This document shows, piece by piece, positions 2,649 through 32,157 of a DNA stretch of 64,000 bases; within the stretch, counting starts at the first letter, position 1; every line of letters starts with the position of its first letter. This stretch comes from Streptomyces antibioticus (GTDB taxonomy: Bacteria > Actinomycetota > Actinomycetes > Streptomycetales > Streptomycetaceae): assembly GCF_001514065.1 (NCBI RefSeq), contig NZ_KQ948430.1, positions 1 to 64,000 of the forward strand, in the 5' to 3' direction. The position numbers and the translations under genes are program-made. The notes beneath the pieces were generated by a model, which saw nothing but the letters and a program-made list of their open reading frames with translations, did no database searches and had not been told where the DNA came from.

Positions 2649-3542
2649 TCAGTGGCGGTGTCCTGGCGTCGGGCCTGCCGGTCCGAGGTCCGGCGGTACG
2701 CAGTAGTCGACGTCGGATTCCGGTGAGATGAGGTCGCCGGATTCGACGTCGGTGCAGTAGGCGTCGAACACCTCGCCCGCGGTCAGGGGCTCGAGGCCTT
2801 CGCCGCGCAGCCGCCAGCCGTAGATGCGGTCGGTGGCACCGGGTGCGCTGGTGCGCATGACGAGTCCGCCGGGGCTCTGGGTGGCGAGGCCGAGGGCGAG
2901 GACCGTGGTGAATTCGAGGGCTTCGGCCTCGTCCAGCTGGACGTCTCCGTCGGCGCCCGAGTCCGCGTGGAGGACCGCGATGAGTGTTTCGGGTGCTCCC
3001 GAGACGCTGCAGACGAGGTGTCGGTTGCCTGGAGGTGCGGTGTCGAGGATGCGGGCGAGGAGGCCGGAGGCCCTGGTGAAGGCGGCTCGGCCGATGTCCT
3101 CGCCGCAGGAGGCGCAGGCACCGAGGCGGGCCAGGAGTGTGGATGCGTACTCCCAGGTGGCCTGGCGGACGGCTTCGTCGATCAGGGCCGGCACGAGGTC
3201 GGCCAAGGGGCGGCCGTCGTACGGGATGGTCGGGCCCGTGGCGGCGAGTTCGGCGGTGAAGCGCGTGCGGCTGGACGGGATGTCCGGGTCGAGGCCGGTG
3301 TCCGCGCAGAAGTGGGCGTACTCATCCGGGTCGAACAGGGCGACCGTGGTGTGGCTGCCCTGGGAGGCGCGGGTGCGTAGGAGCGCTTCGACCTGTTGGA
3401 GATAGCGGGTGTGGTCGTCGAAGGTGAAGCTGCGGTAGCGGCGCATGGCCCGGAAGTCGTGCTCGTCGGTGAGCACGCCGATGGTGCCGGCGATTTCGCG
3501 GCGCAGGACGCGTCGCATGGTCTGGTGGTCGGTGTGTGCCAC
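2649..3542 (-). CDS. Hypothetical actinobacterial protein
   Basis: I do not recognise a named family. The 297-residue soluble protein has no signal peptide or membrane segment. A Cys-x2-Cys pair (ACASCGED, about residue 157) in the middle could bind a metal, but there is no second pair nearby. The C-terminal half is acidic. The start is the GTG at 3542, which follows AGGGGGAAAA; a longer reading from 3575 has no better signal. Convergent to ptsI across a shared terminator and upstream of no obvious operon partner. Codon use is typical of the region, so the gene is real; function unknown. Confidence 0.75.
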   Translation of the reverse strand: MAHTDHQTMRRVLRREIAGTIGVLTDEHDFRAMRRYRSFTFDDHTRYLQQVEALLRTRASQGSHTTVALFDPDEYAHFCADTGLDPDIPSSRTRFTAELAATGPTIPYDGRPLADLVPALIDEAVRQATWEYASTLLARLGACASCGEDIGRAAFTRASGLLARILDTAPPGNRHLVCSVSGAPETLIAVLHADSGADGDVQLDEAEALEFTTVLALGLATQSPGGLVMRTSAPGATDRIYGWRLRGEGLEPLTAGEVFDAYCTDVESGDLISPESDVDYCVPPDLGPAGPTPGHRH

Positions 3543-3654
3543 TTTTCCCCCTGTGCACAGACGATCAATGCTCACTCACAGTAATCGGCGGCACTGACAT
3601 CGGGGTCGGCTGGGGATGCCGCCGCCGGCGCGGGGCGTCGGCGGCGGCTTCGGT

Positions 3655-23875: not shown

Positions 23876-24293
23876 GGCCTCCCCCAGCTGGTCCCCCGCC
23901 GGCCGGGGGTACACATGTGCGTCAATAAACGCCGCGAGCCTACTACCGACGCACAGTTAACTCGAAGACCCTTCCGGAGGGCGAACTTCCGCACTGGTGG
24001 CGAGAGATGGGGAGTTGTCCGGGCATTGCGGGAGATTGCCTCCCGCATTTGAGGGGCTGCGGCCCGCGCGGATCCGGCCGACAGAGGTGGGCAGTTGGCC
24101 AGAATTTTTCGTTTCCTGGGAATCTTCGGGGCGGTTTGTTCGTCGTTCTCTTCAGGAAATGGGGGCGGAATCGGCCACACGAGCCGCATCCCGCAACCGG
24201 GCGGCGTAAAACAGCGCAAGCCGGGCAGCCACTGGGGAGCCGTGTGTTCGAGCACGGGTAAGCGGTCTGCTGGCGGTGGGGAGTGACACCTTG
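23876..24293. promoter_or_regulatory. Divergent promoter region of the conservon
   Basis: This 418-base intergenic stretch separates cvnA from a rightward small membrane-protein gene and is noticeably AT-richer than its surroundings. It contains a hairpin TGCGGGAG-ATTGC-CTCCCGCA (24027-24047). No ORF with Streptomyces-like codon use is evident. Promoters for both directions must lie here but I cannot pin their boxes. Confidence 0.55.
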
Positions 24294-24848
24294 ATGGGCA
24301 CGGCGGAGCGGCAAGAGACGTCCACGGCGGGCGATGCGGCGCACCTGAGGGCGCGGCGCGACCCCGAGGCACCGGATCGCGACATTCCGGCGGACGCCGG
24401 CGCGGCCGGGCCCGGTGCACAGGCCGCAGTGCGGGAACCGGCTCAGGAACAGCCGTACTACCGCCAGTTGTGGGTCGAGGAGCCGGCTCGCCGGCGCCGG
24501 ATGCCCGATCCGGTGCGTAGGGCGGCGGTGCGGGCGGTACTGATCATCGCGGTGACGCTGGTCCAGGCGATAGTGGCGTTCCTGTGCACGCTGGCCGGAT
24601 CATGGCTGGCGTTCCCGATGGTCCTCAGCAGCGTGGCGAGCACCGTGGTGGCGACCTGGGGCGCCCTCGACGTGTGGGTGACCCGGCAGGTCTGGAACCA
24701 GCGCAACGGCGTGGTGTCGGCGCCGAGCAGCACCGCGCGCGCCCTGCGGCGCGAGCGGCGCAAGGCGCGGCGACAGGCCAGGGCGGCCGAGCGGGCGCAG
24801 GGGCGGATACGCCGGCGCGGCGGGGCGGGCCAGCTGTCCCACCCCTGA
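24294..24848 (+). CDS. Small membrane protein, unknown function
   Basis: Predicted inner-membrane protein of 184 residues. The N-terminal ~75 residues are hydrophilic and Ala/Pro-rich; two hydrophobic segments follow (AVLIIAVTLVQAIVAFLCTLAG, about residues 82-103, and WLAFPMVLSSVASTVVATWGAL, about 105-126), and the C-terminus is strongly basic (many Arg), so it probably faces the cytoplasm. Starts at TTG 24291 or GTG 24276 are also possible after GGGGAG. It is convergent with the SMC operon and divergent from the conservon. No family recognised. Confidence 0.65.
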   Translation: MGTAERQETSTAGDAAHLRARRDPEAPDRDIPADAGAAGPGAQAAVREPAQEQPYYRQLWVEEPARRRRMPDPVRRAAVRAVLIIAVTLVQAIVAFLCTLAGSWLAFPMVLSSVASTVVATWGALDVWVTRQVWNQRNGVVSAPSSTARALRRERRKARRQARAAERAQGRIRRRGGAGQLSHP

Positions 24849-24935: not shown

Positions 24936-27900
24936 TTACGACGCGCTCGGTGCCGGTCGCTTGAACATCCGCGTGGCCGTGATCTCGCTGTGCACCGCTT
25001 CCTCGGACTGCGGCTGCTGCGGCAGCCCCGGACGAAGGTGCTCCTCCACGCTGATGTACTTCAGCCCGGCCCTGAGGTCGGCGTCGTTGCGCAGCCGGAT
25101 GACCAGCGGGAACTCAGCAAGGGCCGTCGTGTCGAACAGGCCTGTGGTGTAAAGGAGTTGGACACCGAGGGCGTCCGAGACGGCGCGCTGGAGCTCCAGC
25201 AGATACGTGGCGTTGGCGCGACCGATGGGGTTGTCGAGGAACAGCGTGCCCGCGTGCCGGTGCTTGTCGCGGCCGCGGTCGTTGGAGCGCAGAGCGGCCA
25301 TCGTGCAGTACAGGGCGATGGCCGCCGTGAGCAGCTGACCGCCCGAGAACACGTCGCCCATCTGCCCGACCGGCACCCGCTCGGCGCGCAGCACCGCGTC
25401 CGGCTTGAGGATCTCCACCGCGACACCCTTGGGCTGAAGGGCCGCGCCGACGCCCCTCAGCAGCAGGGACATGCCGTCGCGCCGCAGGTCGGAATTCTTC
25501 TTCACGGCCGCGCGGGTCGCCTCGTCGATGACCTCGCCCAGCCGCTCGGTGAGGGTCGCCTGGTCGGGCTCCTCGAAGCGGATGCGCAGGAACTCCTGCC
25601 CGGACCACTCGCCGAGCCCTTCGGGCAGCCGGGACAGCCGCTGGGCGGACCTCAGGGTCGCCAGCGCAGACTCCACGAGCCCGCGCAGCCGGTCCACGAT
25701 CGAGTCCCGGTTCCGCTCCAGCTGCGCCAACTCGTCGGTGAGGACACGGAGTCGGGGGGCGAAGGCGTCGGCCCACTTCTGCGCGTGCTCCGGCAGCGCG
25801 GAGGCGGGCAGTTCGCGGATCTGCTGGCGGGCGGGGGTGCGGACCTGCTCGTAGCGGGTGGAGTTGGCGTGCCGGACCAGGACGTCGCTCGCCTCGCGCA
25901 CGGCGGCCTCGGCGGCGGACAGGTCGGCCGCGCAGCCGCGCAGCGACCGGCGGGCCTCGGCGGCGGACTGCCGGGCCTCCTCGGGGCTGCCCGGGTAAAC
26001 CTCGGTGTCGTCCTGCTCGTCCTCCGAGGCGTGTTCGCGCAGCAGGTCGCGGAGCATCGCGGCGATCTCGTCGAAACCGCCGGCCGCGTCCTCGGCGGCC
26101 CGGTGGGAGTCCAGGAGCTCGGCGTGCGCCTCCCGGGCCTGCGTCAACGCCTCGGTGCGGGAGGCCAGTTCGGCGGTCGCCGTGCGCAGCAGCGCCTGCG
26201 CGTGGTCGGCGTCGCGCGGCTGGAGGTCCTCCGCCAGTTCGGTGTGCGCCTCACCCTCCTCGGGCGCGTGCCGCTCGGCCTCGCCGCGCAGCCGGCCGAG
26301 CTGCTCGCTCGCGCTGGACATCCGCGTCTCGAGAAGCTGCACCAGCTCCTCGGCGCGGGCCGCGGCGGCCTGCCGGGACGGCCCGTCGGAGCCGTCGGGC
26401 GACTGGAGCAGCGCCTCGGCGCGGGTGCGGACCTTGTTGCTCAGCCGGTCCAGCTCGGCCAGGGAGGCACTTTCGTCGCTCTCCGCGCGCGCCTGCTCGG
26501 CGCGCAGGTCGGCGCCGACCCCGACCTTCTCGTACAGCTGGGAAGCGGCCCGGTAGGCCTCGCGGAGCGCCGGCAGGGACACCTTCGGCGCGTCCGCGTC
26601 GCCGGCCGGTACGTCGTCGGGGGCGCCGGCGATCTCGGCGCGCTCGGCGCGCAGCGCACGGGCGGTGCGGCGGGCGTCGTCGGCGGCACGCTGAGCGGCA
26701 CGCCGGTCCTCGTCGGCGGCGCGCGCCCGCTCCAGGCAGGTCTGGGCGCGGGCCTCCGACTCGGTGGCCTCGTCGGCCAGTTCACGGAGCTTGACCTGCC
26801 AGCCGACGCGCTCCCGCAACCGGAAGGCGAGCCCCGCGAGGGCGTCGGCGGCCCGTCGCGCCTTCTGCGCGGCCTCCTGCCGCTCCTCGCGCACCAGCGT
26901 GGCCTCGGCGGCGGCCTCGTCGGCCTCGGCCCGGACAGTCCGCGCCTCGGCCAGCTCGGCCTCGGACTCCTCGGCGAACGCGCGTGCCTCGCGCGCGGCC
27001 TGGGCCAGCTCGACGAGCCGACCGGCCGGGCAGCCGGTGCGCCAGGAGGCTAGCCGCGCCGCCAGCTCCCGGTCCTTGCCGAGCCGTGCCGCGAGGGAGC
27101 GGATCTCCTCGTCGCGCTCGGTGGCCCGGGCGCGCAGCGCCTGCCGCTCCTCGTCGGCGGCGTGCTCGTCGTGCATGGCGGGGTTCGGCGGGACGAGGAA
27201 CACGCCCTCGCTCCCCGAGCCGGACGCGGGCGTCGGCGCGAGGAGGGCGGCCGCGGTGCCGACGGCGACGGCGGAGCGCGGCAGCAGCGCCGCCTCGCTC
27301 AGCGCATCGCGGGCCCGCGCGTGCGTGTCCGGGTCGGTGATGATCACGCCGTCGACCAGTTCGGGCCGGGCGGCCAGCACGCGCGCGTGGTCGGTGGGGT
27401 CGACGGCCTGGGCGAGATAGCGCCAGCCGGGCAACGCCGGGATGCCGTGCTCACCGAGGTACTCCACGGTCGCCAGCACGTCCGGACCGGGCGGCAGCAG
27501 CCCGCCGTCACCGAGCGCGCCGAGGATGCGGGAGTCGTCGGCGGCCGCGGTGCGCAGCTCGAAGAGCTGGCGTTCGGCGGAGGAGACGGCGTCGTCGAGC
27601 AGCTCGCGCAGTTCGTCGGCGAAGCGGTCGAGGTCTTCGGGCGCCAGGGTGCCCTCGGTGTCACCGGGCTCCGCCGAGCCGCCCTGCGGGGAGCCGTCGG
27701 AACCCGCCCTCGGCACCGGCACTCCCCCGCGCCCCGCGCCGGACGCGCCCGTCAGGCCCAGCAGCTCCACCAGCCGCGGCTCGGCCGCCAGTGCCTCGGC
27801 GAGCCGCCGCTCGGCGTCGTAGGACCGCTCCGCCGCGGCGGCGGCGTCCGCCGCTCGGGCCGCCGTCAGCTCGGCGCGCGACTCCGCGGCACCCGCCTCG

Positions 27901-29591
27901 CGCGCGTGCTCGGTGGCCCGGCGGGCCGTCTCCCGGGCGGTGTCCCAGGCGGCGACCGCGGTCTTCTCGGCGTCGCTGGCGGCGAGCGCCGCGCGCGCGG
28001 GGTCGGCGTCGGGCGCGCTGTCGTCGAGCCAGCCGGCCCGGACGGCCTCGGCGGTCTCCTGCTCGACCTCGCTGAGACGCTGGCGCAGATGCCCGACCTC
28101 GCTGCGGGCGCGCTGGGCCTCGGTGGCGGCGGCGGTGGAGTCCCGATGCGCGGACTCGCCGACCTCCTGAAGGGCGGCGGAGCGCTCCTCCTCCTCGTTG
28201 GCGAGGGTCTCGGCGCTCTCCGCAGCCGCGTGCAGGGCCCGTACGAGGTCCACGGCGGCCTTGGCGCGGGCGGCCAGCGCGGGGGCCGCGTCCCGCTCGG
28301 CCTCCTGGATCGCGGCGGACACGCGCGCGACGCGGTCGGCGGCGGCGCGGTGGCGCAGTACGGCCTCGGCGGCCTGCCAGGCCGAGTGCAGGGTCCGGGC
28401 GTCGGCGAGCTCGCGCTTCTGCGCGGCGGCGGACTTCTCGGCCCCGGCGAGCGCCAAGGAGGCGTGCCGGTAGGCGAGTTCGGCGGCGATCAGCGCGCTG
28501 CGCTCGCGCGCTCCCTCGGCATGGGTGACGGCGTACGCCGCCGCGGTGACCCGCTGGGCGAGGTCGGCGGCCCGCACCCGCTCCTGGGCGCCGCGCGCGG
28601 AGAGCCGCCGGGCCAGCGTCCGGGTACGGCGCTCGGCTCCGGCGTGGATGTCACGCGCGCGGGCCCGGGCCTCGGCCGCCTCGACGATCCGCCCGAGCAG
28701 GTCGACCGACCCGGCCGTGAAGTCCCGTTCCGCCATCAGTTCGGCGCGTCGGCCCAGCTTGTTGCCGAAGCCGCTGACCAGGTCGGCGAGCCCGTCGGTG
28801 TCCCGGGTGTCGGTCACGGCCCGCAGCAGCAGGTCGGTGAAGTCGGAGTCCTTCTTGACCGCGAAGAGTCCTGCGGCCTCACCCTCGTCGGCGTTCATCT
28901 CCCGCTGGTAGCGGAAGAGTTCGGGGTCGAGACCGAGGTCGCCGAGGTGCTCGATCCAGCGGTCGTGGATCTCCTCCCAGTGCACCTCCAGGTGCGGATA
29001 CGCCTTGCCCGCCTCGGTGATGGCGTCCCGGAAGCCCTTCATGGTGCGCCGACGGCCCTGCGCGCCGGACGCGCCCTCGACGGGCGGGCGCACGGCCGTG
29101 GACTCGGCGACGGGCAGGTTGTCCAGGGAGAGCCCGGGGCCGGGCCGGAAGGAGTACCAGGCCTCGGCGAACTTCCGCGGGTCGTTGGAGACCTGCCGCC
29201 CCCGCCACTCGCTGACCTTGCCGACGACCACGCACTCACCGGTGAGCGTGTGCTGCCACTCCAGGGCGACATGCCCGCAGTCGTCGGCGAGCAGGAACTT
29301 CCGCAGCACGCCGGAGCTGGCGCCGCCGAGGGTGTTGCGATGGCCCGGCAGCATCACCGAGAAGATCAGCTTGAGCAGTACGGACTTGCCGCCGCCGTTC
29401 TCCAGGAAGAGCACGCCGGCGGGTGCGGGGCGGCGCGGCGGGCCGGCCGGCTCCTCCTCGAAGAACTCCGCCTGGGTGGGCGCGGGGTCGGGCACGACGT
29501 CGCCCACACCCCGCAGGTCAAGCACGGTGTCGGCGTAGCGCGCACCGGCGGGACCGATGGAGTAGAGGCGGACCCGGGACAGCTCGTACAT
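24936..29591 (-). CDS. Large SMC-like coiled-coil ATPase (MukB/JetC-like)
   Basis: Protein of 1551 residues with an SMC/Rad50-type layout. The N-terminal ATPase half has LFLENGGGKSVLL (Walker A, Lys69-Ser70); about 1100 residues of Ala/Arg/Glu heptad coiled coil follow, broken near residues 680-790 by a non-coil domain that could be a hinge; the C-terminal half carries VFSGGQLLTAAIAL (signature, Gln1419) and TLFLDNP (Walker B, Asp1453). It would dimerise and embrace DNA. Asn1454 occupies the position of the usual catalytic glutamate. It is the last gene of a three-gene operon with kleisin-like and kite-like candidates upstream, the order of MukBEF or Wadjet JetABC. No nuclease gene follows. 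Confidence 0.85.
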   Translation of the reverse strand: MYELSRVRLYSIGPAGARYADTVLDLRGVGDVVPDPAPTQAEFFEEEPAGPPRRPAPAGVLFLENGGGKSVLLKLIFSVMLPGHRNTLGGASSGVLRKFLLADDCGHVALEWQHTLTGECVVVGKVSEWRGRQVSNDPRKFAEAWYSFRPGPGLSLDNLPVAESTAVRPPVEGASGAQGRRRTMKGFRDAITEAGKAYPHLEVHWEEIHDRWIEHLGDLGLDPELFRYQREMNADEGEAAGLFAVKKDSDFTDLLLRAVTDTRDTDGLADLVSGFGNKLGRRAELMAERDFTAGSVDLLGRIVEAAEARARARDIHAGAERRTRTLARRLSARGAQERVRAADLAQRVTAAAYAVTHAEGARERSALIAAELAYRHASLALAGAEKSAAAQKRELADARTLHSAWQAAEAVLRHRAAADRVARVSAAIQEAERDAAPALAARAKAAVDLVRALHAAAESAETLANEEEERSAALQEVGESAHRDSTAAATEAQRARSEVGHLRQRLSEVEQETAEAVRAGWLDDSAPDADPARAALAASDAEKTAVAAWDTARETARRATEHAREAGAAESRAELTAARAADAAAAAERSYDAERRLAEALAAEPRLVELLGLTGASGAGRGGVPVPRAGSDGSPQGGSAEPGDTEGTLAPEDLDRFADELRELLDDAVSSAERQLFELRTAAADDSRILGALGDGGLLPPGPDVLATVEYLGEHGIPALPGWRYLAQAVDPTDHARVLAARPELVDGVIITDPDTHARARDALSEAALLPRSAVAVGTAAALLAPTPASGSGSEGVFLVPPNPAMHDEHAADEERQALRARATERDEEIRSLAARLGKDRELAARLASWRTGCPAGRLVELAQAAREARAFAEESEAELAEARTVRAEADEAAAEATLVREERQEAAQKARRAADALAGLAFRLRERVGWQVKLRELADEATESEARAQTCLERARAADEDRRAAQRAADDARRTARALRAERAEIAGAPDDVPAGDADAPKVSLPALREAYRAASQLYEKVGVGADLRAEQARAESDESASLAELDRLSNKVRTRAEALLQSPDGSDGPSRQAAAARAEELVQLLETRMSSASEQLGRLRGEAERHAPEEGEAHTELAEDLQPRDADHAQALLRTATAELASRTEALTQAREAHAELLDSHRAAEDAAGGFDEIAAMLRDLLREHASEDEQDDTEVYPGSPEEARQSAAEARRSLRGCAADLSAAEAAVREASDVLVRHANSTRYEQVRTPARQQIRELPASALPEHAQKWADAFAPRLRVLTDELAQLERNRDSIVDRLRGLVESALATLRSAQRLSRLPEGLGEWSGQEFLRIRFEEPDQATLTERLGEVIDEATRAAVKKNSDLRRDGMSLLLRGVGAALQPKGVAVEILKPDAVLRAERVPVGQMGDVFSGGQLLTAAIALYCTMAALRSNDRGRDKHRHAGTLFLDNPIGRANATYLLELQRAVSDALGVQLLYTTGLFDTTALAEFPLVIRLRNDADLRAGLKYISVEEHLRPGLPQQPQSEEAVHSEITATRMFKRPAPSAS

Positions 29592-29628
29592 GGCGGACTC
29601 TCGTAAGTCTTCGGCAGGTGGGGGGAGT

Positions 29629-30519
29629 TCAGGACGAGGACGACGCGTGGAACGGCAGTCCGGCGTCGGCCGCCAGCTCCAGGTCCTCGGTGTTCTCGGC
29701 GGGCAGCAGCGTCGGCGTGCCGTCGGTCACGGGGACGACGCCCAGTTCCAGCAGCTCGGCCATGGCGGCGCTGCCGGCCATGTCCCGCACCTGGAGCTGG
29801 TAGCGGGCCGTCGTTCGGTACGTACCGCCGTTGTCGTCGCCGGTGCGCTGGAGGAAGCCGGAGTCGGTGAGGAAGGCGACGGCCTTGCCGATGATGCCGG
29901 TGGTGGACCCGGCGAGGCGGCGCGCGTCCTTGGTGGCGCCGGTGGCGCTGCGTCTCGCCCAGATCCGCCAGGCGGCCTCCAGGCCGGGCGCCTCGGTGGC
30001 GGGGTCGGTGTTCTCCCCCACCTCCTCGGCGCGCTCCTCCAGGCGCCGGCAGGCCTGCCGGACGAAGGCGTCGACGCCGTTGACACTGACGCGTCCGATG
30101 TAGCCGTCGTCGGCGAGGTCCTCGGGCCGCGGGAACGCCAGGGCGGCGACGGCCAGATGGGCCAGGCCGTGCAGGAACCGGTCGCTGCCGTCGGCGGAGG
30201 TCCGGCGCGCGTAGTCGCCCATGCGCACGGCGAAGACGGAGTCCTCGGCGGCGGTGACCGCCATCCCCGCGCGGGGGGACACCTCCAGGACGACGAGCCC
30301 CAGTCCGGCGGCCACGGCGTCGGCGAGCCGCGCGAACGCCCCGTCCTCCCGGTAGCGCCGCAGCAGTTCGGTGTACTCCTGGTCGCGCGCGGGCTGCAGT
30401 TTGGGCTGGAGCCCGAAGGCGACGAGCCGCGCCGCGTCGGCGGCGTCGGCGGGGGTGACGGCGGCGGGGGCCGGAGCGGGTCCGGCTTCCGGCTCACTCC
30501 ACTCGACGTGCTCGGTCAC
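29629..30519 (-). CDS. Kite-like accessory subunit candidate of SMC complex (MukE/JetB position)
   Basis: Protein of 296 residues with no named domain that I recognise. The position between the large upstream protein and the SMC-like ATPase, its acidic soluble character and helix-rich segments (LLRRYREDGAFARLADAVAA, FVRQACRRLEERAEEV) fit the kite subunits of MukBEF/JetABC complexes, which consist of two winged helices. A region around residues 195-245 (AGSTTGIIGKAVAFLTDSGF ... TARYQLQVRDM) resembles a winged-helix domain. The GTG at 30519 follows GAGGAGACCGACC. It ends 37 bases before the ATPase start. The assignment is by context and fold inference, not by sequence match. Confidence 0.55.
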   Translation of the reverse strand: MTEHVEWSEPEAGPAPAPAAVTPADAADAARLVAFGLQPKLQPARDQEYTELLRRYREDGAFARLADAVAAGLGLVVLEVSPRAGMAVTAAEDSVFAVRMGDYARRTSADGSDRFLHGLAHLAVAALAFPRPEDLADDGYIGRVSVNGVDAFVRQACRRLEERAEEVGENTDPATEAPGLEAAWRIWARRSATGATKDARRLAGSTTGIIGKAVAFLTDSGFLQRTGDDNGGTYRTTARYQLQVRDMAGSAAMAELLELGVVPVTDGTPTLLPAENTEDLELAADAGLPFHASSSS

Positions 30520-30550
30520 GGTCGGTCTCCTCGGTCCACTGTGCTTCGGC

Positions 30551-32077
30551 TCATGCTGCTTCTGTCCTGTCCGCCGCCATCCCCGCCGCGTCCAGCAGGG
30601 CGGTGCCGACAATGAGATCCGCGCCGCCGAACTCTGGATCGTCCAGCTCGGTGCCGTCGTCCACGGCGAACAGCAGCTTCTCCTCGCCCTGCCGGTAGGC
30701 GGTGCCCACCGCCGGGCTGGCCGCGTGCACGGCCAGCAGGGCCACGAGATACGGCAGGTCGGGGTCCTGGCGGCGGGCCTCGGCCAGCAGCCCGGACAGC
30801 CGCCGGGGCGCGTCGGCCGGGAGGTCGAGGAGTTCCATGGCCGCCGCCAGCTGCTCCTCGCTGAACCGGCTGTCGTCCGGTGTGGCGATGAGGTCCGGCT
30901 CCGGCATCTCAGCGCCGAGGTGCTCGCGCTCGACCGGCGGCGTCAGCAGTATGTCGACGAGGTCGCCCACCCGCACCGACACCGGCGTCCGCATGCCGGT
31001 GCCGCGCGCGAAGAACGCGTCGGTGACCTTGACCGCCTGCTCCTGGGGCAGCGGCAGCAGCGGAGCGACCAAGTGACCGTAGAGGTCTATTCCCGACGTC
31101 GTGAGCGGCGTCGCGAAGGCCTGCCGGTCCTGCTCCGCGCGGAACAGCGGGCCGGCCTCCAGCAGGCGGGACTGGAGCTGGGTGTGGCGCCGGATGCAGT
31201 CCTTGACGATGTCGACGAGCTCGGCGGCCCGGCGCTTCTGCTCCGGGTCCTCGGACTCGTCGCGCGCCTTGCGGATGTTGGTGAGGATCGCGTTCTCGTG
31301 GCGGTAGCGGTCGGCGACATGGTCGAGGGCCTCGGTGATCATGTCCGGGACGGCGTTCAGCCAGTCCACCGCGCGGACGTTGCGCCGTGTGGCGTCCAGG
31401 GCGCGGCGCAGCGTCTCCGAGTACTGCACGGTCCGGTACCGGGCCTGCTCGGCGGCCAGCTGGGCGTCCGCGAGGCGGCCCCGGCTGATCAGCACCTCCA
31501 GCTTGACCTCGGCGGCGATCTGGGCGCTGGTGACGTCGGTGTCGAGGGCGCCCACGAGGACGTTGACCGCCTCGTCCGTCGTACGGAGGTACACCGAGCC
31601 GCCGGGGCCGGGCACCTCCTCGATCAGCTTGAAGTCGTAGTCACGGCGCACATAGGTGCCGTCCGGCGCGAACGTGCCGTACACGGCCCGGAAGCCGCGG
31701 TCGACGCTGCCGACGTTGATCAGGTTCTCCAGCACCCAGCGGGCCACCCGCTCATGCTCGGCGACGGACCGCTGGGGGGCCTGCGCGGCGATGCGCGGGA
31801 TGAGGCGGGCGACGATCTGGTCGTGGTCGGCACCGGTGTCGAAGTCCATGTTCAGGGTGACCAGGTCGATGGCGGCGAGGGCGACCTCCGCCATGCCGTA
31901 CACCGAGTACTCACCCGCGAGGTTCGCCTTGCGCGCGTCCAGGTCGTGCAACGGCGCGGTGCACGCGAGCGCGCGCAGCCGCCGCGCCAGTCCCTCGTCG
32001 GCGGCCGGGCCCGGAGCGGGACGGGACGCTGCGCTGAGCTGGGGCGGAACGCTGTCCGTCGGTGCAGGCGAAGTCAC
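30551..32077 (-). CDS. Kleisin-like subunit candidate of SMC complex (MukF/JetA position)
   Basis: First gene of the operon, encoding a 508-residue soluble protein. It has a long helical middle (about residues 170-300, with QAAEQARYRTVQYSETLRRAL-type heptads and ENAILTNIRKARDESED) flanked by globular ends, as in MukF- and JetA-type kleisins, where the ends bind the two ATPase heads. I see no catalytic motif. The start is probably GTG 32077; no good ribosome site precedes it, and a TTG at 32107 is also open. It is 31 bases from the next gene. Identity as a kleisin is inferred from gene order and secondary-structure pattern. Confidence 0.5.
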   Translation of the reverse strand: MTSPAPTDSVPPQLSAASRPAPGPAADEGLARRLRALACTAPLHDLDARKANLAGEYSVYGMAEVALAAIDLVTLNMDFDTGADHDQIVARLIPRIAAQAPQRSVAEHERVARWVLENLINVGSVDRGFRAVYGTFAPDGTYVRRDYDFKLIEEVPGPGGSVYLRTTDEAVNVLVGALDTDVTSAQIAAEVKLEVLISRGRLADAQLAAEQARYRTVQYSETLRRALDATRRNVRAVDWLNAVPDMITEALDHVADRYRHENAILTNIRKARDESEDPEQKRRAAELVDIVKDCIRRHTQLQSRLLEAGPLFRAEQDRQAFATPLTTSGIDLYGHLVAPLLPLPQEQAVKVTDAFFARGTGMRTPVSVRVGDLVDILLTPPVEREHLGAEMPEPDLIATPDDSRFSEEQLAAAMELLDLPADAPRRLSGLLAEARRQDPDLPYLVALLAVHAASPAVGTAYRQGEEKLLFAVDDGTELDDPEFGGADLIVGTALLDAAGMAADRTEAA

Positions 32078-32157
32078 GGTGCACAGACTAGGTCCTCGGT
32101 CTGACAACGACTAAAACGACGCAGAACAGACCCCTGGCGACCGGCGTGATCCCGACG

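What the first reader, a model, noticed from the sequence alone, without database searches (positions are those of the whole stretch)
24936..32077. Three-gene SMC-like ATPase operon with MukBEF/JetABC order but no nuclease gene
A 508-aa helical protein, a 296-aa winged-helix-like protein and a 1551-aa coiled-coil ATPase lie 31 and 37 bases apart in the same order as kleisin-kite-SMC in Wadjet and MksBEF systems. The defence versions end with the topoisomerase-like nuclease JetD/MksG. Here the next gene is convergent and no Toprim or nuclease protein is encoded in the other 57 kb. It could be a chromosome-organising condensin beside the usual SMC-ScpAB, a plasmid-restriction system using a distant nuclease, or an undescribed DNA-sensing complex. 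The two small proteins are assigned by context only.
Basis: partly seen in the sequence, partly recalled or inferred. Interest (0 to 1): 0.8.

Follow-up and report, generated by a model that had tools for sequence, protein, structure and literature searches.

The report
Nuclease-free Wadjet-type complex in Streptomycetaceae
Streptomyces-family bacteria nearly all carry what looks like the motor of a plasmid-killing machine without its cutting part, behind what looks like a DNA-damage switch, so a weapon may have become a tool for the cell's own chromosome.

Summary
The three genes exist as described. They are the JetABC half of a type III Wadjet system: PADLOC scores the ATPase as JetC3 (1407 bits) and the 508-aa protein as JetA3 (621 bits); the 296-aa protein models like MukE/JetB. 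JetA matches in 198 of 200 Streptomycetaceae genomes, 17 of 17 genera; JetD3 above 160 bits occurs in 18 of those 200 and not in this genome. At the core locus JetD is absent in 62 of 62 loci that could be decided. ATPase motifs are kept, dN/dS is low, and JetB has a lineage-specific tail (62 of 67 core, 0 of 70 others). jetA sits behind a RecA-NDp-type (DNA-damage) promoter in 56 of 67 core loci, the type found before recA in 20 of 20 scored. Best reading: a Wadjet-derived, nuclease-free loop extruder domesticated for genome maintenance under DNA damage, beside SMC. Identity is well supported; function is inferred. Published precedent: Pseudomonas MksBEF.

The parts
32085..32107 (-). RecA-NDp-type promoter element of jetA: TTGTCAGAC-N8-TAGTCT, ending 7 nt before the GTG start (mRNA possibly leaderless, inferred)
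   Evidence: pattern match 32085-32106, sequence; TGTCRG-N10-TANNNT in 56 of 67 core loci; published consensus tTGTCRgtg - 8 nt - TannnT (PMC5656591, passage)
30551..32077 (-). jetA-like gene (putative kleisin, 508 aa)
   Evidence: PADLOC JetA3 PDLC00567, 620.6 bits; five of the top seven Foldseek rows are MukF or MukBEF entries, but E 0.10-0.39 on a poor model
29629..30519 (-). jetB-like gene (KITE, 296 aa) with C-terminal AGLPFH tail, residues 286-291
   Evidence: top 12 Foldseek rows all from MukE-MukF, MukEF-gp5.9, MukBEF or JetABC entries; tail in 62 of 67 core JetB, 0 of 70 others
24936..29591 (-). jetC-like gene (SMC-type ATPase, 1551 aa); Walker A LENGGGKS, signature SGGQ, Walker B LFLDNPIG
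   Evidence: PADLOC JetC3 PDLC00588, 1407.5 bits; sequence; motifs kept in relatives
24276..24848 (+). convergent neighbour, 190 aa, no Pfam match, standing where JetD would follow
   Evidence: found downstream of core JetC in 52 of 62 loci; Pfam none

Best explanation
It is the JetABC motor of a type III Wadjet system that has no nuclease JetD and is a near-universal chromosomal gene set of Streptomycetaceae. [quoted passage not shown] Inferred: JetC dimers, closed by JetA and carrying JetB, bind and extrude loops of the cell's own DNA using ATP, as Wadjet does on plasmids, but without cutting. Transcription rises when DNA damage activates the PafBC pathway, so extra loop extrusion or tethering helps hold, compact or segregate damaged or entangled chromosomes while RecA-dependent repair proceeds. 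The conserved JetB tail would dock a host partner in place of JetD.
For: Family. JetB fold. Presence: JetA in 198 of 200 family genomes, 17 of 17 genera; JetA, JetB and JetC head each in 37 of 37 same-genus genomes. JetD: none in own genome; absent in 62 of 62 decided core loci. The three same-genus genomes with JetD3 above 160 bits (G007, G022, G032) have it next to a second, divergent JetABC and also keep the core copy. ATPase motifs kept; dN/dS JetA 0.05-0.19, JetB 0.13-0.21, JetC 0.11-0.29. Promoter element upstream of jetA in 56 of 67 core loci; over all loci 66 jetA-upstream hits against 17 elsewhere in 5.2 million strand-bases; recA positive control 20 of 20 scored. JetB tail 62 of 67 against 0 of 70, codons vary synonymously. 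Canonical SMC also present. Precedent: P. [quoted passage not shown]
Against: No expression, binding or phenotype data. The JetA model is poor (mean pLDDT 52.5) and its MukF matches are not significant. An S. venezuelae study states that an initial motif search suggested the M. smegmatis PafBC motif is not conserved there (PMC9380542, passage), although S. coelicolor SCO6735 has a RecA-NDp promoter and is UV-induced (PMC5087735, passages). The element is also seen at 3 of 14 JetD-bearing copies and 3 of 3 undecided other copies, so it does not mark loss of the nuclease, and it is not conserved in the other nuclease-poor clades (f18 1 of 17, Pseudonocardiaceae 1 of 33). Deleting SCO6735 gave no UV or MMS sensitivity, so the promoter alone does not prove a repair role. 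In 4 of the 18 family genomes with JetD3 above 160 bits only one JetA match was found, so a JetD working with the core copy in trans is not excluded there.
Confidence: 0.58

Rival explanations
1. Still a defence system: JetABC recognises incoming plasmid or phage DNA and either recruits a nuclease encoded elsewhere or silences and traps the DNA without cutting. The damage-type promoter would respond to incoming single-stranded DNA during conjugation.
For: The sequence family is a defence family. A paper title in the listing says single-stranded DNA binding triggers PafBC (PMC11804915, title and abstract start only). The promoter element also precedes 3 of 14 JetD-bearing copies.
Against: JetA is in 198 of 200 family genomes, the neighbouring sensor kinase was found in 12 of 14 core loci, relatives lie on only 5 plasmid records, all under 60% identity, and on no phage record. 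176 of 200 family genomes show no JetD3 match.
Confidence: 0.17
2. A constitutive or developmental condensin, for example for sporulation or for folding the large linear chromosome, with the promoter giving basal expression rather than damage induction.
For: Near-universal in a family of mycelial sporulating bacteria. P. aeruginosa MksBEF contributes to chromosome organisation. Nuclease-poor clades in Pseudonocardiaceae and family f18 lack the damage-type promoter.
Against: In the upstream sequences shown for the core loci the best-conserved stretch contains the RecA-NDp-type element.
Confidence: 0.2
3. A decaying remnant of a Wadjet operon that has lost its effector and has no function.
For: JetD is gone.
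Against: Conserved ATPase motifs, 81-97% identity across the genus for JetA and the JetC head, low dN/dS, family-wide retention.
Confidence: 0.02

Closest known systems
Wadjet type III (JetABCD, PADLOC JetA3/JetC3/JetD3)
   Same: Gene order and the JetA3 and JetC3 sequence families; second copies in the same genus at 47-53% identity (JetA, JetB, JetC head of G007 and G032) form complete JetABCD operons
   Different: No JetD found anywhere in the genome; genes 31 and 37 nt apart, whereas those of L075 and L076 overlap by a few bases; near-universal rather than patchy; C-terminal JetB tail
MksBEF of Pseudomonas aeruginosa
   Same: [quoted passage not shown] beside canonical SMC (recalled)
   Different: That complex is described as MukBEF-like; this one belongs to the type III sequence family, in actinomycetes, with a RecA-NDp-type promoter
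MukBEF of enterobacteria
   Same: Kleisin-KITE-SMC architecture; the JetB model matches MukE entries
   Different: No MukBEF or JetABC chain in the PDB sequence searches at E up to 10 or 1; MukBEF replaces SMC (PMC10586767, passage), whereas this genome keeps SMC
MksBEFG/EptABCD of Corynebacterium and Mycobacterium
   Same: Actinobacterial Wadjet relatives
   Different: Those carry MksG/JetD and act against plasmids (PMC10123090 and PMC10586767, passages); PF09983 rings in C. glutamicum but not here

Membership tests
Wadjet type III | JetC3 ATPase | tested here: met
   PDLC00588, 1407.5 bits
Wadjet type III | JetA3 protein | tested here: met
   PDLC00567, 620.6 bits
Wadjet type III | JetB3 protein | tested here: inconclusive
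   No PADLOC JetB3 hit for this protein; of three JetBs of JetD-bearing systems tested, two had none and one 17.1 bits. Homologous to those JetBs (49-52% identity in G032 and G007); fold matches JetB/MukE entries
Wadjet type III | JetD nuclease in the operon | tested here: not met
   none at the locus or in the genome
Wadjet type III | restriction of small circular plasmids | not testable with these tools
   needs plasmid assays
MksBEF-like nuclease-free condensin | kleisin, KITE and SMC subunits without a nuclease gene | tested here: met
   by sequence family for JetA and JetC, by fold for JetB, no JetD
MksBEF-like nuclease-free condensin | kleisin fold of the 508-aa protein shown by structure | tested here: inconclusive
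   model of low confidence, matches not significant
MksBEF-like nuclease-free condensin | coexists with canonical SMC | tested here: met
   TIGR02168, 934.9 bits, one match over the cut-off
MksBEF-like nuclease-free condensin | acts on chromosome organisation or segregation | not testable with these tools
   needs Hi-C, ChIP, deletion
RecA-NDp (PafBC-type) promoter | tTGTCRgtg - 8 nt - TannnT upstream of the gene | tested here: met
   window TTGTCAGAC-N8-TAGTCT matches all capital letters of the consensus and one of the three lower-case letters of gtg; 56 of 67 core loci match TGTCRG-N10-TANNNT, 23 of 67 TTGTCRGTG-N8-TANNNT
RecA-NDp (PafBC-type) promoter | PafBC-dependent induction by DNA damage | not testable with these tools
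   needs expression data

The most novel reading that the evidence does not exclude
Streptomycetaceae carry a previously undescribed second SMC complex, a domesticated nuclease-free Wadjet III, wired into the RecA-independent DNA-damage response: a damage-induced loop extruder, functionally comparable to Smc5/6, which docks a host partner through a new JetB C-terminal tail. Wadjet III operons were disarmed separately in at least two or three actinomycete lineages.
Probability: 0.42. Interest if true: 0.86.

Novelty: new variant of a known kind. Interest (0 to 1): 0.74.

Why it matters
The passages on MukB, MksB, SMC-like proteins and Wadjet in two Streptomyces SMC papers name no second SMC-type complex in the genus. 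A near-universal one with a damage-type promoter would change how smc deletion phenotypes are read, and would give a natural set of disarmed and armed sister complexes in one genus for asking how an immune machine becomes a chromosome organiser. It also warns that defence-gene models can score a core operon as Wadjet parts.

Tried and rejected

Correction: an earlier count said PF09983 occurs in 7 of 37 same-genus genomes; the count is 6 of 37.

Limits: trees are FastTree on concatenated JetA, JetB and JetC-head segments with a root I chose. Two pairs of loci carry identical JetA (L148/L212 in the core, L123/L166 in Pseudonocardiaceae) and are counted twice in the locus counts. f18 is an unnamed family. 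Loci are related by descent, so counts are not independent events.

Full report
What is there. Three genes on the minus strand, 32077 to 24936, encode 508, 296 and 1551 residues with gaps of 31 and 37 nt. The window is part of a 10.1 Mb genome (G000). Named relatives whose JetA scores over 900 bits are mostly Streptomyces, so the source is very likely a Streptomyces (inference).

How widespread it is. In 61 genomes, JetB, the JetC head and JetA each match in 37 of 37 same-genus genomes; outside the genus, JetB and the JetC head match in 1 of 24 and JetA in 2 of 24. In 200 genomes of the family JetA matches in 198, in 17 of 17 genera; G134 and G197 have no match and G069 only a weak one (E 1.9e-16) (the list of places was cut, so identities of the weaker matches were not seen). 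In 393 genomes of the class it matches in 63: 44 of the own genus, 18 of family f18 and one of f43. Relatives occur on 5 plasmid records, all under 60% identity, and on no phage record. Around the operon, the neighbouring sensor kinase was found in 12 of 14 core loci and the convergent 190-aa neighbour in 52 of 62.

Where the nuclease is. Pfam JetD_C matches 11 of 61 genomes, 6 of 37 in the genus and not G000. JetD3 PDLC00594 matches 11 of 61 genomes, 8 of 37 in the genus, of which only G007, G022 and G032 exceed 160 bits (the other five 21-32 bits); in these three it follows a second JetABC at a different place. In the 200 family genomes it matches 24, 18 of them above 160 bits; 14 of these 18 also show a second JetA match, 4 do not. 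By locus: core Streptomycetaceae 62 of 62 decided loci without JetD (7 more could not be decided because the JetC end was not found in the locus); f18 10 of 11 decided (8 undecided); Amycolatopsis, Prauserella, Actinophytocola and Qaidamihabitans 32 of 33 decided (1 undecided); one Cellulomonas and one Pseudonocardia locus without; JetD present in 8 of 12 other copies (4 undecided), in 2 of 2 Actinoallomurus or Streptosporangiaceae-MAG loci and in one Micromonosporaceae MAG. In 19 f18 and f43 genomes JetD3 above 160 bits is in 3.

Evolution. In the tree of 86 taxa the Streptomycetaceae core (18 taxa) is one clade (support 1.0; 0.967 in the first tree) with no JetD; 18 f18 loci without a seen JetD form another (1.0); a Pseudonocardiaceae clade has no JetD except in Amycolatopsis rifamycinica, which has it with similar neighbours. 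JetD-bearing copies lie between and outside these clades. Some deeper nodes are weak (0.35-0.60). With the root I placed among distant copies, JetD looks ancestral and lost in at least two or three lineages; regain in A. rifamycinica, or another rooting, cannot be excluded.

Signs of function. In JetC segments not assigned to a JetD-bearing copy, the SGGQ signature and the LDNPIG Walker B are kept in 41 of 41 and 68 of 68, and Walker A in 46 of 47 and 72 of 73 (two sets). dN/dS in four comparisons is 0.05-0.19 (JetA), 0.13-0.21 (JetB) and 0.11-0.29 (JetC), against 0.30-0.44 (three comparisons) for the neighbouring sensor kinase, 0.13-0.38 for GntR and 0.19-0.39 for LamB. JetB ends in an AGLPFH tail in 62 of 67 core proteins and 0 of 70 others; its codons vary synonymously; of the five misses three read AGLPFF and two look out of frame.

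The promoter. Upstream of jetA most core loci share TTGTCRGTG-N8-TANNNT or a near form. In the window it reads TTGTCAGAC-N8-TAGTCT, 7 nt before the GTG; the pattern TGTCRG-N10-TANNNT has two matches in 64 kb against 0.08 expected. That pattern is found in 56 of 67 core loci and the full consensus in 23 of 67; f18 1 of 17, Pseudonocardiaceae 1 of 33, JetD-bearing copies 3 of 14, undecided other copies 3 of 3, Cellulomonas and Pseudonocardia 0 of 2; 3 loci with too short an upstream stretch were left out. Over all loci 66 hits are upstream of jetA and 17 elsewhere in 5.2 million strand-bases; of the 11 core misses 8 differ from the pattern at one position and 3 at two (by eye). The published RecA-independent DNA-damage consensus is tTGTCRgtg - 8 nt - TannnT (PMC5656591, passage); it is called RecA-NDp, and PafBC activates its targets through it (PMC6789036 and PMC8223512, passages). 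As a positive control the pattern stands upstream of recA in 20 of 20 loci scored, 19 with the full consensus (10 of 30 loci were not scored because my recA start pattern missed them). In S. coelicolor a RecA-NDp gene is UV-induced, but its deletion gave no UV or MMS sensitivity (PMC5087735, passages). Against a PafBC link, PMC9380542 (passage) reports that an initial search suggested the M. smegmatis PafBC motif is not conserved in S. venezuelae.

Reading. The genome has canonical SMC. A nuclease-free, near-universal, selected JetABC with a damage-type promoter most likely acts on the cell's own chromosome. The review PMC10586767 (passages) gives the precedent: P. aeruginosa MksBEF, likely JetABCD without JetD, contributes to chromosome organisation and segregation. 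Loop extrusion here is inferred from the family, not shown.

Literature. Ten searches showed, in the titles and abstract starts listed, no paper that describes a nuclease-free JetABC in Streptomyces; some lists were cut, and the library lacks most subscription papers and all bioRxiv preprints. PMC10482375 (passages) reports Wadjet in Streptomyces, found with DefenseFinder, as enriched towards the chromosome ends.

Noticed in passing
3578-3599 (-), gene 2649-3575 (-): A second RecA-NDp-like site (ATGTCAGTG-N8-TACTGT) directly before a 308-aa gene without a Pfam match: a candidate DNA-damage gene.
   Followed up: partly
L183 16554-17771: Amycolatopsis rifamycinica has JetD after JetC with similar neighbours to those of its sister species without JetD.
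   Followed up: partly
L134, L135, L152 upstream of jetA; L131: Three JetD-bearing copies and one undecided copy also have a RecA-NDp-like promoter, so complete Wadjet III may be damage-inducible too.
   Followed up: no
24936-29591 and relatives: Type III JetC reads LDNP at Walker B, with and without JetD, where SMC proteins usually have an acidic residue after the D (that comparison is recalled).
   Followed up: no
L153, L154, L162, L123, L165: In several Pseudonocardiaceae the operon lies upstream of gap-type and, in some, pgk/tpi-type genes; in L165 it follows YvcK- and WhiA-like genes (names by eye).
   Followed up: no
L112, L115, L118, L119, L127 and others of L111-L130: In family f18 the operon often has a TerD-like gene upstream and a convergent conserved protein (GRHRSPWG...ILPIRW) downstream (names by eye).
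   Followed up: no
G069: A family member with no clear core JetA but with a JetD3 of 174 bits and a weak JetA match.
   Followed up: no
G012: JetA, JetB and JetC matches lie 0.1 to 3 Mb apart on one contig and are partial; possibly an assembly fault.
   Followed up: no
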